Shown piece by piece: positions 58,771 through 64,000 of a stretch of DNA of 64,000 bases. A program made the position numbers and the translations under genes. The notes under the pieces were generated by a model. The model worked only from the letters and a program-made list of their open reading frames with translations, was not told where the DNA came from and ran no database searches. The stretch is from the NCBI GenBank assembly GCA_028283825.1, contig JAPWJW010000002.1:434001-498000 (forward strand), in the 5' to 3' direction. Numbering within the stretch: position 1 is the first letter of the stretch; each line of letters begins with the position of its first letter. This stretch comes from Azospirillaceae bacterium (lineage in GTDB: Bacteria; Pseudomonadota; Alphaproteobacteria; Azospirillales; Azospirillaceae).

Positions 58771-59010
58771 ATGCCGAACGATGACGACGACGCGGCGTTG
58801 TACCTAGTGGTGGTCAACGACGAGGAACAATATTCGATTTGGCCAACCGGTCGCGACCTGCCCAGCGGCTGGCGGGGGGTGACCGGGCCGGCGATCAAGG
58901 CCGACTGCCTGGCCCATATCTCGCGGGTCTGGGTTGATATGCGACCGGCTTCGCTGCGCCGTCCGGTCGGGGGTGGAACGGATGCGGCGGGGACGATGCC
59001 GAATGGCTGA
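58771..59010 (+). CDS. MbtH-family NRPS helper protein
   Basis: A 79-residue protein with the MbtH pattern: NDEEQYSIWP near residues 16-25, SGWRGV, CLAHISRVWVDMRPASLR. MbtH proteins bind the adenylation domain and activate it. The three expected Trp are present. ATG 58771 has AGGAG eight bases upstream. The stop overlaps the start of the condensation-domain gene by 8 bp, so expression is coupled. Confidence 0.93.
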   Translation: MPNDDDDAALYLVVVNDEEQYSIWPTGRDLPSGWRGVTGPAIKADCLAHISRVWVDMRPASLRRPVGGGTDAAGTMPNG

Positions 59011-60559
59011 CCTCGCCGCCCGCCTCTCCAATCTTTCAGTGGACCAACGGGCCTTGCTGCAAAGCCGCTTGCAGGCGGCCCGCGCCGGACAGGCGTCGAC
59101 CGCGGGCACGTCGGCCGCCATCACACGGCTGACGCGCGACCGCGACGTCTTCCCCCTATCCTTCGCCCAGGAACGGCTCTGGTTCCTGGATCAGCTTCAG
59201 CCTTACAGCGCCGCTTACAACATACCGGAGGTCTACAGCTTCTCCGGCCCGCTGAACGTGGAGGCGCTGGAGCGTGCCCTGCAGGAGATCCTGCGCCGGC
59301 ACGAGGTGTTGCGCAGCCGCTTCGTGGTGCGGGAAGGACAGCCGGCGCAGTGCATCGACCCGCCCCCGGCGCCGGTCCTGCGCATGGTGGATTTGCGGCC
59401 GCTGGCGGCCGACGCCCGGCCGGCCGCATTGCAGCGCCTGGTCATGGAGGCGGCGGGCACCGTGTTCGATCTGTCCGCGGGCCTATTGCTGCGGGCGACC
59501 CTGGTCGCGCTGGGCGACGCCGACCACGTCCTGCTGGTGACGATGCACCACATCGTGTCGGACGGGTGGTCGATGGCCATCTTCGCCCGCGAGTTGACCC
59601 AGCTCTACCAGGCCTATTACGCCGGACAGCCCTCACCCCTGGCGGAGCTTCCGATCCAATATGTGGACTTCGCCCACTGGCAACGGCACTGGCTGTCCGG
59701 TGCGGTGCTTCAACGCCTGCTGGACTATTGGCGCGGACAGCTGGCCGGCGCCCCCGCCATCCTCGCCCTGCCCACGGACCGGCCCCGTCCGCCCATGCAG
59801 ACCTTTGTCGGGGCCCAGTACAATTTTAATGTCGCGCCCGAGGTCACCGCCGCCCTGACCGCCCTGGCGCGGCAGGAAGGTGCCACCCTGTTCATGGTGC
59901 TGCTGGCGACCTTCAAGGCGCTGCTCTACCGCTGGTCCGGGCAGGAGGACATCGTGGTCGGCACCCTGACGGCCGGTCGCAACCGGGTCGACATCGAGGG
60001 GTTGATCGGCTTTTTCGTCAACACCCTGGCGCTGCGCACCGACCTGTCGGGCAACCCCCGTTTCCGCGACCTTGTGCGCCGGGTCCGCACCGTGACGCTG
60101 GAGGGGTTCGCCCACCAGGATCTGCCGTTTGAGAAACTGGTGGGTGAATTGCGGCCGGAGCGGCGCCTCAGCCAGCATCCGCTGTTCCAGGTGCTGTTCG
60201 CCCTGCAGAACATTTCGGCCCAAACCGCGGCGCCGCCGCAAGGGGCATCGCCGCCGCCGGCCGCCGACCCGGCGCCGGTGGCCGCGCGCACGGCGAAGTT
60301 CGACGTGGCCTTGTTCATGAGCCCGTCGGGGGCCGGCCTTGCGGCCTCGTTCGAATACAACGTCGACCTGTTCGACGCGGCGACCATCGCGCGCATGGCG
60401 GCGCATCTGGTGACCCTGCTTGATGGCGTCGTCGCCACGCCGGATCGCCCGATCCTGGACATCCCGCTCGAGGCCGCCGTCCCGTCCGCCGCCGGCCGGG
60501 AACACAGACGCGGCCGGCTGGAAGAAACCTTCGATTTCGAACTGACGCCATCAAGCTGA
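59003..60559 (+). CDS. Free-standing NRPS condensation domain
   Basis: A 518-residue single condensation domain of LCL type. After an N-terminal helical stretch (about 45 residues), C1 is SFAQERLWFLDQL, the catalytic motif is HHIVSDG with His182/His183 and Asp187, and the later IEGLIGFFVNTLALR and HQDLPFEKLV motifs are present. Intact active site. No adenylation or carrier domain is fused, so it must act in trans. The neighbouring NRPS starts with only half a C domain, which this protein could complement (inference). Confidence 0.9.
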   Translation: MADLAARLSNLSVDQRALLQSRLQAARAGQASTAGTSAAITRLTRDRDVFPLSFAQERLWFLDQLQPYSAAYNIPEVYSFSGPLNVEALERALQEILRRHEVLRSRFVVREGQPAQCIDPPPAPVLRMVDLRPLAADARPAALQRLVMEAAGTVFDLSAGLLLRATLVALGDADHVLLVTMHHIVSDGWSMAIFARELTQLYQAYYAGQPSPLAELPIQYVDFAHWQRHWLSGAVLQRLLDYWRGQLAGAPAILALPTDRPRPPMQTFVGAQYNFNVAPEVTAALTALARQEGATLFMVLLATFKALLYRWSGQEDIVVGTLTAGRNRVDIEGLIGFFVNTLALRTDLSGNPRFRDLVRRVRTVTLEGFAHQDLPFEKLVGELRPERRLSQHPLFQVLFALQNISAQTAAPPQGASPPPAADPAPVAARTAKFDVALFMSPSGAGLAASFEYNVDLFDAATIARMAAHLVTLLDGVVATPDRPILDIPLEAAVPSAAGREHRRGRLEETFDFELTPSS

Positions 60560-60569
60560 GGACCGTCCC

Positions 60570-63500
60570 ATGAGCATGGTTACGGAAGACAAGCTGATTT
60601 TCGACGCGCAGTTGAACGAGGCGCGACGCTATTGGCTGGACACGCTTCCCGCCGGCATCACCCCGACGACCCTGCCCCAGGACGGGTCCCAGGATGGAAC
60701 CGCGCCGGCGTCCACCGCCAGGCCATGGGACGCGGTCATCCTTGAGGGCCTGGGGTCACCGGCCCTCGCGCGCCTCACCAAGGGATCGCCCTTCCTGCTG
60801 TTCAGTTATCTCACCACCGTGGTGGCGCTCTGCCTGCATCGCCATACCGGCAGCGGGACCATCGCCCTGGGCACCCCCGCCCTGGACGGCGTCAACGCCG
60901 TGACCGTCGTGACCGGGGTGACGGACGCCATGCCGGTGCGCCGGCTTCTGGCCGATATGCGCGAAAACCTGCGGCAGGCCTATGACCACGACCACTATCC
61001 GGTCTCGCGGCTGGTCAAGGAATTGGAACTGCCGGCGTCGGGGCCATTCCCGCTGTTCGCGGTCGCGCTGACCCTGGCGGGGCTGCATGGCGAACTTCCG
61101 CCGCTGAACCTGGACCTCATCATCCGCTTCGCCGGGCGGGACGGCGACCTGACGGCGCGGATTGAGTATCGCCGCGATCTTTTCAGTCGCGCCGCGATCG
61201 ACCGTTTCGCCGGCCATCTGCACCAGGTCGCCCAGGCGGCGGTGGCCGACCTGGAACGTCCGGTGGGCGATGTCCCCCTGCTTACGGCCATGGAACACCG
61301 GCAACTGGTCGGCGACTGGAACGACACGGCGGCCGACTATCCGCGGGAAGCGGGCATTCACACCCTGGTCGAACAGCAGGCCGCCCGCACCCCCGATGCG
61401 CCGGCGGTGCGGCAGGGGGGCCGGGTGCTCTCCTACGCCGACCTGAACCGCCGTGCCAACCGGCTGGCGCGGCGGCTGCGCCAGCTGGGTGCCGGCCCGG
61501 ACGTCGCCGTCGGCCTGCTGATGGAACGGTCGCCGGATCTGCTGGTCGCCATCCTGGGAATTCTGAAGGCGGGGGCGGCGTATCTGCCGCTGGACCCGGC
61601 CTGGCCTGACGACCGGCTGGCCCTTGTCGCCGGCGACAGCGCCATACGCCTGATGGTCAGCCGGGCGGACCACGCCCCCCGCCTGCGCCACCTGGAAGGC
61701 GCCCCGCCCCTCACCGTCGTCGCCGTCGATGATCCGGAACTGGAGGCTCTTGAGGGGGCGGATTTGGCGCTGCCGGTCGGCCCCGGCGACGCCGCCTACA
61801 TCCTCTATACCTCCGGCACCACCGGCAAGCCCAAGGGCACCATCGTCCCACACCAGGGGGTGGTCAATTACTGCCACTGGGCGGCGGGCGCCTATCTGGA
61901 TGACCGGCGTCTGGCCTTTCCCCTGTTCTCGCCCATCACCTTCGACCTGACCGTGACCTCGATCTTCGTGCCGTTGATCACGGGGGGCAGCATCGTCGTC
62001 TATCCTGACGACGGCGCCGGCGGCACGCCGTCGATCCTGGCGGTGATGCAGGATGACGCGGTCGATATCATCAAGCTGACCCCGGCCCACCTGCAGCTGG
62101 TCCGCGACGCCGGCATCCGCGCCCCGCGGGTGCGCAAGCTGATCCTGGGCGGCGAGGATCTGAAGACGGCGCTATGCGGTTCGCTGAACGGCGTTTTCCG
62201 CGGCGACATCGAGATATTCAATGAATATGGGCCGACCGAGACCGTCGTCGGCTGCATGATCCATCGCTTCGACCCCGCCGCCGACCGGGGGGGCGCCGTC
62301 CCCATCGGCCGGGCGATCAGCAACGTCCGGCTCTATGTGCTGGACAAGGCGCTGCGCCCGGTGCCCATCGGGGCGCGCGGCGAAATCTTCATCGCCGGGG
62401 ACGGCGTGGCGCGCGGCTATCTGGGCCGGCCGGAGCTGACGGCCGAACGGTTCCTGCCCGACCCCTTCCATGCCGGCGCGCGGATGTATCGCACCGGTGA
62501 CATCGCCCGCTGGCGCGCCTCCGGGGTGATGGAATATTTCGGCCGCGCCGACCACCAGGTCAAGATCCGGGGCGCGCGGGTGGAACTGGGCGAGGTCGAG
62601 GCGGCGCTGGCCGCCCATCCCGCGGTCCGGGAATGCGTGGTCGATGTCGTCCATCACGGCAAGGTCGGGGGCGGGGACCGGCCGCTTGCGCCGACCTACT
62701 GCGCGCGCTGCGGCCTGCCCTCCAACTATCCCGGCGTCAGCTTCGACGGGGAGGGCGTCTGCAACCATTGCCACAACTTCGAGTTCTATCGGGACAAGGC
62801 CAAAGCCTATTTCCGCCCCATGGACGATCTCAGCGGGCTGTTCGCCGAGGCCAAGGCCCGCAGCCGCGGCGACTACGACTGCATGGTGCTGTACAGTGGC
62901 GGCAAGGACAGCACCTATGTGCTGTGCCGGGTCGTGGCCATGGGCATGCGGGTCCTGGCCTTCACCCTGGACAACGGCTACCTGTCGGAGCAGGCGAAGG
63001 ACAACATCCGCCGCGTGGTGGGGGCGCTGGGCGTCGATCACGTCTTCGGCGAAACGCCGTTCATGCGCGATATCTTCGCCGAAAGCCTGCGGCGCAACAG
63101 CAACGTCTGCAACGGCTGTTTCAAGACCATCTACACCATCGCCATCAACCTGGCCAAGGAAAGGGGCATACCCTGCATCGTGACCGGCCTGTCACGGGGC
63201 CAGCTCTTTGAAACGCGGCTGGCCGAACTGTACCAGAACAACGTTTTCGATCCCGACACCATCGACCGCATGGTCCTGGATGCCCGGAAACTCTATCACC
63301 GGGCCGAGGACGTCATTTCCCGGTCGCTCGACGTCCGCATCTTCCAGGACGACGCGACCTTTGAGATCGTCAAGATCATCGATTTCTATCGCTATTGCGA
63401 CGTGGAGCTGGACGAGCTTTATCGCTTCATCAAGGCCCAGGTGCCCTGGAGCCGGCCCATGGACACCGGCCGGTCGACCAACTGCCTCATCAATGAGGTG

Positions 63501-64000
63501 GGCATCTATGTCCATAAGAAGACGCGGGGTTTCCACAACTATGCCCTGCCCTATTGCTGGGATGTCCGCCTGGGCCACAAGACGCGGGACGCGGCGCTGG
63601 CCGAACTGGACGAGCAGATCGACGTCGCCAACGTCACCAGCATCCTGACCGAGATCGGCTACGAATGGGATGGGGACGGGGATAAGACCGAGACGGCGCT
63701 CGTGGGTTACTACGTCGCCGACCGCCGCATCGCCCTGGAGGATCTGAAACATTTCCTGGCGCGGAAACTTCCGGCCTACATGGTGCCCAGCTATTTCATC
63801 CGGCTGGACGCCATCCCCCTGACCGCCAACGGCAAGGTGGATCGCAAGGCGCTGGTGCGGCCGATGGGCAAGCGCCCCGACCTGGCCCGGGAATTCGTGG
63901 CGCCGACGACGCCGGTGGAGGCGGAACTGTGCCGCATATGGTCCGGCCTCCTGGGGGTGGTCCAGGTCGGCATCCACGATAATTTCTTTGACCTGGGGGG
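60570..64000 (+). CDS. NRPS with PP-loop ATPase inserted in the adenylation domain (partial)
   Basis: At least 1143 residues; it runs off the window. Residues 1-230 match only the C-terminal half of a condensation domain (no HHxxxDG). The adenylation core follows: A3 YTSGTTGKPKG at 413, A4 FDLTVTSIF at 458, YGPTET, A8 VKIRGARVELGEVE at 664. About 330 residues are then inserted (roughly 705-1038): a zinc ribbon with Cys711/714/731/734, SGGKDS at 776-781 and CNGC at 847-850. The A domain resumes with A9 LPAYMVP at 1067 and A10 NGKVDR at 1087. A carrier domain begins and the window ends in DLGG. The specificity positions read DLTKIGEVGK, one conservative change from the published Asn code. ATG 60570 follows GAGG. 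Confidence 0.9.
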   Translation, partial: MSMVTEDKLIFDAQLNEARRYWLDTLPAGITPTTLPQDGSQDGTAPASTARPWDAVILEGLGSPALARLTKGSPFLLFSYLTTVVALCLHRHTGSGTIALGTPALDGVNAVTVVTGVTDAMPVRRLLADMRENLRQAYDHDHYPVSRLVKELELPASGPFPLFAVALTLAGLHGELPPLNLDLIIRFAGRDGDLTARIEYRRDLFSRAAIDRFAGHLHQVAQAAVADLERPVGDVPLLTAMEHRQLVGDWNDTAADYPREAGIHTLVEQQAARTPDAPAVRQGGRVLSYADLNRRANRLARRLRQLGAGPDVAVGLLMERSPDLLVAILGILKAGAAYLPLDPAWPDDRLALVAGDSAIRLMVSRADHAPRLRHLEGAPPLTVVAVDDPELEALEGADLALPVGPGDAAYILYTSGTTGKPKGTIVPHQGVVNYCHWAAGAYLDDRRLAFPLFSPITFDLTVTSIFVPLITGGSIVVYPDDGAGGTPSILAVMQDDAVDIIKLTPAHLQLVRDAGIRAPRVRKLILGGEDLKTALCGSLNGVFRGDIEIFNEYGPTETVVGCMIHRFDPAADRGGAVPIGRAISNVRLYVLDKALRPVPIGARGEIFIAGDGVARGYLGRPELTAERFLPDPFHAGARMYRTGDIARWRASGVMEYFGRADHQVKIRGARVELGEVEAALAAHPAVRECVVDVVHHGKVGGGDRPLAPTYCARCGLPSNYPGVSFDGEGVCNHCHNFEFYRDKAKAYFRPMDDLSGLFAEAKARSRGDYDCMVLYSGGKDSTYVLCRVVAMGMRVLAFTLDNGYLSEQAKDNIRRVVGALGVDHVFGETPFMRDIFAESLRRNSNVCNGCFKTIYTIAINLAKERGIPCIVTGLSRGQLFETRLAELYQNNVFDPDTIDRMVLDARKLYHRAEDVISRSLDVRIFQDDATFEIVKIIDFYRYCDVELDELYRFIKAQVPWSRPMDTGRSTNCLINEVGIYVHKKTRGFHNYALPYCWDVRLGHKTRDAALAELDEQIDVANVTSILTEIGYEWDGDGDKTETALVGYYVADRRIALEDLKHFLARKLPAYMVPSYFIRLDAIPLTANGKVDRKALVRPMGKRPDLAREFVAPTTPVEAELCRIWSGLLGVVQVGIHDNFFDLG

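What the first reader, a model, noticed from the sequence alone, without database searches (positions are those of the whole stretch)
60570..64000. Adenylation domain split by a zinc-ribbon/PP-loop ATPase between A8 and A9
Sequence shows an NRPS A domain interrupted after VKIRGARVELGEVE and resumed at LPAYMVP. The insert of about 330 residues has a four-Cys zinc ribbon (YCARC, VCNHC), an N-type PP-loop SGGKDS and a central CNGC. Known interrupted A domains carry methyltransferases, oxidases or ketoreductases at this site. The insert instead resembles WbpG-type N-acetyl sugar amidotransferases (amidine formation) and, through its Cys pairs, TtcA/TtuA-type tRNA thiolases. It could adenylate an amide or carboxylate on the bound amino acid and replace oxygen with nitrogen or sulfur. 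The chemistry is inference; the fusion is direct.
Basis: partly seen in the sequence, partly recalled or inferred. Interest (0 to 1): 0.92.

Follow-up and report, generated by a model that had tools for sequence, protein, structure and literature searches.

The report
Sulfur-inserting domain inside a peptide synthetase
A bacterial enzyme that strings amino acids into small molecules carries, inside the domain that probably selects asparagine, an extra domain resembling enzymes that swap oxygen for sulfur, and the same arrangement turns up across many bacterial phyla.

Summary
One 1218-residue ORF (window 60570-64226, ending 226 bases past the window) encodes partial C, A core, a ~330-residue zinc-ribbon/PP-loop domain, A C-terminal subdomain and PCP. 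It is no assembly join: in 78 of the 80 best relatives fetched (18 named phyla) both A-domain halves flank the insert; contig ends cut the other two. All seven insert cysteines are invariant (81 of 81 rows). The host A domain reads as asparagine-type (75 of 79 rows exact, 4 near). HisH/HisF, beside 5 of 6 amidotransferase-like genes examined, are absent from the 80 fetched loci. Best reading: a cis thioamide synthetase making thioasparagine on the carrier protein, perhaps for metal-binding peptides (HupE/UreJ or TonB genes beside 47 of 80). Amidine or nitrile formation remains possible: 2 of 5 amidotransferases compared share the Fe-S-type cysteines, the best fold match is an amidotransferase, and no product is known.

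The parts
60570..64000 (+). NRPS gene, partial C - A(core) - PP-loop insert - A(C-term) - PCP; 1218 aa, continues 226 bases beyond the window (C2:494570-498226)
60606..61310 (+). C-terminal half of a condensation domain (profile positions 189-456)
   Evidence: Pfam PF00668
61371..62642 (+). A-domain core, asparagine-type pocket code DLTKIGEVG(K)
   Evidence: PF00501/TIGR01733; code (that this code means Asn is recalled)
62685..63674 (+). Inserted zinc-ribbon/PP-loop (AANH superfamily) domain, residues about 706-1035, bounded by low-confidence linkers
62700..62771 (+). Four-cysteine zinc ribbon, C711 C714 C731 C734, invariant in 81 of 81 rows
62895..62912 (+). PP-loop SGGKDS, residues 776-781 (D780, S781 align with D77, S78 of the protein taken for CtaC)
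63108..63119 (+). CNGC, C847 and C850 (align with Fe-S cysteines C154, C157 of CtaC)
63483..63485 (+). C972 (aligns with Fe-S cysteine C284 of CtaC)
63687..63836 (+). A-domain C-terminal subdomain with A10 NGKVD
   Evidence: PF13193; motif
63993..64000 (+). Start of PCP core motif LGGHS; the phosphopantetheine serine lies just outside the window
58934..60559 (+). Stand-alone condensation domain gene directly upstream
   Evidence: PF00668 380 bits
58771..59010 (+). MbtH-like protein gene
   Evidence: PF03621
57853..58641 (+). Haem-oxygenase-like (iron-containing redox enzyme family) protein; a relative lies beside the closest homologue locus L020
   Evidence: PF14518; cluster

Best explanation
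The gene encodes an asparagine-activating NRPS module whose A domain carries, at the A8-A9 insertion point, a cis-acting thioamide synthetase of the [4Fe-4S] AANH (TtcA/TtuA/CtaC-like) type. The A domain loads Asn on the adjoining PCP. The insert then binds ATP at SGGKDS, adenylates the oxygen of the Asn side-chain carboxamide and lets sulfide, held at the open iron of a cluster on C847, C850 and C972, displace AMP, leaving a primary thioamide (thioasparagine) that is passed to the next modules. Shown: the fused architecture, its conservation, the invariant residues, the Asn-type pocket and the alignment with CtaC. Inferred: the Fe-S cluster, the sulfur donor, the side-chain position and the timing before condensation. 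In many hosts the cluster sits with HupE/UreJ or TonB-receptor genes, so a soft-metal-binding peptide is a plausible product (inference).
For: Seven cysteines and the PP-loop invariant in 81 of 81 rows. A 355-aa PP-loop protein in an unnamed 4,068,724-base genome (G287, locus L140) has D77, S78, C154, C157 and C284 exactly as given for CtaC in PMC6772006, beside chorismate-lyase-like, ATP-grasp and (just below Pfam's cut-off) transglutaminase-like genes, functions the paper assigns to CtaA, CtaD and CtaJ; I take it for CtaC. These five residues and its four ribbon cysteines all align with the insert. CtaC acted only on PCP-bound substrate, lost activity without its cluster, and its gene cluster encodes no sulfur-mobilising enzyme (PMC6772006, parts 1-2 of 3 read). 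Tree: inserts lie with 7 of 9 stand-alone AANH proteins including CtaC, apart from 5 of 5 WbpG, support 88/86. hhalign 272 against the CtaC-type set, 243 against the WbpG set. TIGR03573: the three WbpG given reach 281-358 bits, the insert 143 and CtaC 124, cut-off 203.2. No HisH/HisF in the fetched stretches of 80 loci nor in 60 kb of the own genome, nor beside 9 of 9 stand-alone AANH proteins. Asn-type code: 75 of 79 readable rows DLTK[IV]GEVG, the other four one or two letters off, and 2 of 2 further fused relatives; an enzyme for any backbone amide would not need one amino acid (inference). The one paralogue with a broken PP-loop has a non-Asn code (L142). After WbpG, the fold hits include TtuA, LarE, NcsA and YcfA (YcfA's role in thioguanine is recalled).
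Against: The tri-cysteine pattern also occurs in 2 of 5 WbpG that have HisH/HisF (L105, L141) and is absent in the other 3, so it does not by itself prove thiolation. One further WbpG-like gene (L143) has neither HisH/HisF within its 19-kb stretch nor the extra CxxC, so lack of HisH is not peculiar to sulfur enzymes. Raw identity does not favour CtaC: 19% with CtaC against 21-23% with the five WbpG; hhalign identity 20% against 23%. The best fold hit is a WbpG-type amidotransferase. Two stand-alone AANH proteins fall on the WbpG side of the tree, and several branches are long. Where the domain occurs in trans (L019, Streptomyces), the neighbouring A domain is not Asn-type. In L017/L018 a true WbpG-HisF-HisH set lies about 12-15 kb away on the same plasmid. 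CtaC lost activity in air and most CtaC homologues were in anaerobes (PMC6772006), whereas hosts here include Zobellia and cyanobacteria. No sulfur donor was identified and no product is known.
Confidence: 0.58

Rival explanations
1. Amidine synthetase: as in WbpG, the domain adenylates the Asn carboxamide (or another amide) and ammonia replaces oxygen, giving 3-amidinoalanine.
For: Best named PP-loop family and best fold hit are N-acetyl sugar amidotransferases; 2 of 5 WbpG with HisH/HisF share the CxxC...C pattern; one WbpG-like gene has no HisH/HisF in its fetched 19 kb (L143). QueC uses ammonia directly (PMC13060819 passages), so a glutaminase is not strictly required.
Against: Below the TIGR03573 cut-off whereas the three WbpG given pass; no HisH/HisF near any of 80 fetched loci; exactly one HisH above cut-off in each of 7 genomes examined; no TIGR03573 match above cut-off in the own genome; tree places the inserts with CtaC.
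Confidence: 0.17
2. Thioamidation of a backbone amide of the growing peptide (as CtaC does on PCP-bound oligo-beta-alanine amides) rather than of the Asn side chain.
For: CtaC precedent.
Against: The constant Asn-type code. Nested methyltransferases are described as acting on the T-bound amino acid (PMC8949500 and PMC11355689 passages).
Confidence: 0.12
3. Nitrile formation: ATP-dependent dehydration of the Asn side-chain amide to beta-cyanoalanine, as ArtA/NitB or the second step of QueC.
For: QueC is a weak profile match and a PDB entry titled nitrile synthetase (9leh, E 0.05) a weak sequence match; ATP-dependent amide-to-nitrile enzymes exist for an NRPS product, auranthine (PMC13060819 passages).
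Against: No reason for the invariant CxxC and late Cys (inference); QueC match 24.9 bits against a cut-off of 150.3.
Confidence: 0.06
4. Assembly or annotation artefact joining two genes.
For: None found; 0 of 6 congeners have the insert, which fits horizontal acquisition as well.
Against: Both A-domain halves flank the insert in 78 of 80 fetched loci and in the complete plasmid record L018.
Confidence: 0.01

Closest known systems
CtaC, NRP thioamide synthetase of closthioamide (Ruminiclostridium cellulolyticum, PMC6772006)
   Same: AANH superfamily, zinc-ribbon pairs, SGGKDS, CxxC and late Cys all at aligned positions; thiotemplate context; no glutaminase nearby; sub-cut-off TIGR03573 match.
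   Different: CtaC is a free-standing 355-aa protein acting on backbone amides in an NRPS-independent pathway; here the domain is nested in an Asn-type A domain; 19% identity over 324 columns.
WbpG / N-acetyl sugar amidotransferase (TIGR03573; PDB 8wex)
   Same: Zinc ribbon, PP-loop, overall fold; 21-23% identity; 2 of 5 share CxxC...C.
   Different: Insert scores below the cut-off; no HisH/HisF partners; CxxC...C is absent in 8wex and in 3 of 5 WbpG compared.
Interrupted A domains with methyltransferase, oxidase, monooxygenase or ketoreductase inserts (e.g. TioS AMA4, 5wmm)
   Same: Insertion between A8 and A9, adjoining PCP; 5wmm is fold hit 11 for the whole module.
   Different: The inserted domain is a PP-loop ATPase, a type not mentioned in the passages that I saw of three reviews.
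TtuA / TtcA / NcsA / LarE [4Fe-4S] sulfurtransferases; YcfA
   Same: PP-loop fold; three cysteines as cluster ligands in the TtcA/TtuA family (PMC6772006); TtuA, NcsA, LarE and YcfA are fold hits.
   Different: Act on tRNA, cofactor or nucleotide substrates (recalled); sequence match weak (TtuA E 0.79).

Membership tests
Interrupted NRPS adenylation domain (A8-A9 type) | A core and A C-terminal subdomain in one ORF, separated by a folded domain after A8 | tested here: met
Interrupted NRPS adenylation domain (A8-A9 type) | Inserted domain acts on the amino acid bound to the adjoining PCP | not testable with these tools
   needs biochemistry
N-acetyl sugar amidotransferase (WbpG, TIGR03573) | Score above curated cut-off 203.2 | tested here: not met
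   142.8 bits; 3 of 3 WbpG given pass
N-acetyl sugar amidotransferase (WbpG, TIGR03573) | HisH/HisF-type partners encoded nearby | tested here: not met
   none in 80 fetched loci or own 60 kb; one HisH above cut-off in own genome; present beside 5 of 6 WbpG-like genes checked
[4Fe-4S] thiotemplated thioamide synthetase (CtaC-type) | PP-loop Asp/Ser and three cluster cysteines | tested here: met
   D780, S781, C847, C850, C972 align with CtaC D77, S78, C154, C157, C284; invariant 81 of 81
[4Fe-4S] thiotemplated thioamide synthetase (CtaC-type) | Phylogenetic grouping with CtaC apart from WbpG | tested here: inconclusive
   grouped so, but support 88/86 and long branches
[4Fe-4S] thiotemplated thioamide synthetase (CtaC-type) | Binds a [4Fe-4S] cluster and forms a thioamide on a PCP-bound substrate | not testable with these tools
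   needs biochemistry
QueC / LarE | Scores above curated cut-offs (150.3 / 150) | tested here: not met
   24.9 and 33.2 bits

The most novel reading that the evidence does not exclude
A previously unrecognised, widely spread class of NRPS module that makes thioasparagine in cis with a [4Fe-4S] AANH domain nested in its Asn A domain, feeding a family of thioamide metallophores (HupE/UreJ or TonB genes beside 47 of 80 loci) found in at least 18 bacterial phyla.
Probability: 0.4. Interest if true: 0.92.

Novelty: new variant of a known kind. Interest (0 to 1): 0.82.

Why it matters
The CtaC paper calls thioamide-containing nonribosomal peptides exceedingly rare (PMC6772006 abstract). If the reading is right, thioamide chemistry is built into assembly lines of cyanobacteria, Bacteroidota, Actinomycetota, Acidobacteriota and others, one ORF predicts both the residue (Asn) and its modification, and a new kind of insert joins the A-domain toolbox. 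The metal-transport genes beside many loci suggest copper- or other soft-metal-binding peptides (inference) that could be sought directly in culturable strains such as Zobellia.

Tried and rejected
Assembly join: rejected by conservation. Straight WbpG membership: rejected by the TIGR03573 cut-off and missing partners. The three cysteines alone as proof of thiolation: rejected, because 2 of 5 HisH/HisF-linked WbpG share them. Lack of HisH as a clean test: weakened on checking, because WbpG-like L143 also has none in its 19 kb; for this I lowered the main confidence from 0.60 to 0.58, raised the amidine rival from 0.16 to 0.17 and the backbone rival from 0.11 to 0.12, and lowered the novel case from 0.42 to 0.40. 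Prediction that the trans relative L019 would sit beside an Asn A domain: failed (code DARHASLMT), though an asparagine synthase gene lies upstream; asparagine synthase is near 2 of 80 fused loci. Cysteine geometry in 3D could not be measured, since no coordinates are laid in the Python box. Identifying the host: 25 kb of the window found only short plasmid matches, 4 of 11 records Azospirillum; left unnamed. Pocket codes of the stand-alone A genes were too varied to assign a substrate. Literature: the nine searches of one open-access library listed no paper that, by title, start of abstract or the passages read, describes a PP-loop or thioamide insert in an A domain; the main categorisation paper (Lundy 2020, PMC8341866) is not held and the CtaC paper's supplement was not looked at, so earlier notice cannot be excluded.
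Full report
Observation. The frame opens at 60570, runs without a stop to the window end, and in the parent genome (window = G000:C2:434001-498000) ends at C2:498226, giving 1218 residues. Pfam and NCBIfam find a partial C domain (13-247), an A core (268-691), a WbuX-like PP-loop domain (709-1017) and AMP-binding_C (1040-1089); the LGGHS motif of a PCP follows. The A8-to-A10 spacing is 423 residues against 85 and 86 in the next two modules of the operon.

Structure. AlphaFold2 with 68 sequences gives the insert a mean pLDDT of 93.4 and pTM of 0.90. Foldseek finds first the Legionella N-acetyl sugar amidotransferase 8wex (E 2e-11), then YcfA, TtuA with Fe-S cluster, LarE and NcsA among the best 50. 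The whole A-insert-PCP model (54 sequences, pLDDT 88.9, pTM 0.69) shows the insert joined by two short low-confidence linkers at about residues 699-705 and 1036-1038; its hits are A domains and NRPS modules, with the methyltransferase-interrupted A domain 5wmm at rank 11.

Distribution. The A core lies upstream in 79 of 80, A C-term downstream in 79 of 80, both in 78, PCP in 78; the gaps (L031, L043, L074) are at contig ends; in L058 the ORF begins inside the A core. The loci come from 18 named phyla and one unassigned. Two repeat records fetched otherwise (L098, L099). Three plasmid records carry close relatives: two fused (L017, L018) and one in trans (L019, Streptomyces). Of 386 genomes searched as relatives, 4 including the own have it at E <= 1e-60, and 0 of 6 congeners do, which suggests horizontal acquisition (inference).

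Invariant features. In 81 rows (80 loci plus the window), C711, C714, C731, C734, S776, G777, G778, K779, D780, S781, C847, C850 and C972 are all invariant. The pocket code was readable in 79 of 83 rows: DLTK[IV]GEVG in 75, DLTKIGEVA in 2 (the same sequence twice), DLSKIGEVG in 1 and DMTKIGEVA in 1; an NGK motif for the A10 lysine was not found by the simple pattern in 13 of 79. Two more fused relatives, L149 and L150, are also Asn-type. That the code means Asn (DLTKLGEVGK, against Asp DLTKVGHIGK) is recalled, not from a call. A clostridial paralogue whose PP-loop has decayed (SGGRGAAN) has a different code, DPWMLGTIN.

Relation to CtaC. Dunbar et al. 2019 (PMC6772006; parts 1 and 2 of 3 read) showed that CtaC, an Fe-S AANH protein, thioamidates a PCP-bound substrate, and that changes at D77, S78 (activity abrogated), C154, C157 and C284 (diminished) matter. 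Its neighbours include a chorismate-lyase-like, an ATP-grasp and a transglutaminase-like protein (the last at 21.5 bits, cut-off 23) and, by eye, carrier proteins, an aminotransferase and a decarboxylase. I take it to be CtaC; this is inference from numbering and gene content, as the tools name no G genome and the paper's figures are not held. Its functional residues and ribbon cysteines (8, 11, 30, 33) all fall on those of the insert, at 19% identity over 324 columns.

Sulfur or nitrogen. For nitrogen: the best-scoring named PP-loop family and fold are amidotransferases; 2 of 5 WbpG with HisH/HisF (L105, L141) carry CxxC...C, while 3 of 5 and both GlmS-fused PP-loop proteins lack it, as does 8wex; raw identity with the five WbpG is 21-23% against 19% with CtaC. 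For sulfur: the insert (143 bits) and CtaC (124) miss the TIGR03573 cut-off of 203.2, while the three WbpG given reach 281-358; the tree puts the inserts with 7 of 9 stand-alone AANH proteins including CtaC and apart from all 5 WbpG, support 88/86, with long branches; hhalign scores 272 against CtaC-type and 243 against WbpG-type profiles, with 20% and 23% identity; HisH/HisF stand beside 5 of 6 WbpG-like genes checked (not L143), beside 0 of 9 stand-alone AANH genes, and in none of the 80 fetched loci nor in 60 kb of the own genome. One HisH above cut-off was found in each of 7 genomes. In L017/L018 a WbpG-HisF-HisH set lies on the same plasmid about 12-15 kb from the NRPS, which weakens the point for those two. 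Many fetched loci are short, so absence is for the stretch held.

Context. In the own genome the upstream genes are a haem-oxygenase-like protein, MbtH and a free C domain; downstream come two uninterrupted C-A-T modules (codes DVQFIAHHL and DIMQIGL--, the first Pro-like from memory), then DUF2946, TonB-receptor and PepSY genes. Elsewhere HupE/UreJ or TonB-receptor genes lie beside 47 of 80 loci, and a free A domain together with an acyl-CoA dehydrogenase beside 27 of 80 (families checked on one or two representatives). Neighbour counts rest on a simple ORF picker, single-linkage clusters and contigs of uneven length. A metal-binding product is therefore a lead, not a result.

Verdict. A real, widespread and, as far as I could search, unreported kind of interrupted A domain, most likely a cis thioamide synthetase making thioasparagine. 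Novelty is rated a new variant of a known kind because both halves (interrupted A domains and CtaC-type AANH enzymes) are known and the combination and its spread are what is new. The statement that it is unreported rests on nine searches of one open-access library and on passages of three reviews.

Noticed in passing
L142 4830-11258 (also L116): Clostridial NRPS with a decayed PP-loop insert (SGGRGAAN) that keeps its cysteines and, by eye, a B12-binding-like segment before the A3 motif of the same A domain.
   Followed up: partly
L103 4251-6065; L104 4122-6086: Proteins that join a glutaminase-like N-terminal part (by eye) to a WbpG-like PP-loop domain, annotated as glucosamine 6-phosphate synthetase and 7-cyano-7-deazaguanine synthase; perhaps cis-glutaminase amidotransferases in sugar loci.
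   Followed up: no
L101 5755-6903: Streptomyces stand-alone PP-loop protein with the CxxC...C pattern but only one zinc-ribbon pair, near an acyl carrier protein and a ketoacyl synthase gene.
   Followed up: partly
L019 16190-22882: PP-loop domain at the N-terminus of a protein annotated as condensation domain-containing (in trans), with asparagine synthase and amino acid racemase genes, in a stretch that also has a tyrosine aminomutase gene.
   Followed up: partly
L010 5811-10400: DUF2946 (His-rich), TonB receptor and PepSY_TM genes downstream of the NRPS operon; possible copper or other metal uptake.
   Followed up: partly
L077 11485-11970 and relatives: Small (~150 aa) His-containing protein, clustered in 17 loci, all Bacteroidota; no Pfam match in the one representative scanned (L045); in L077 it lies between the NRPS gene and a TonB receptor.
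   Followed up: no
L134 and L135: Stand-alone AANH proteins with CxxC and a late Cys, with PEP-synthase-like and AMP-ligase-like genes nearby (by eye); they fall on the WbpG side of the tree but have no HisH/HisF in the stretch.
   Followed up: no
L143 (complement strand, 381-residue frame): WbpG-like protein without the extra CxxC and without HisH/HisF in its 19-kb stretch.
   Followed up: no
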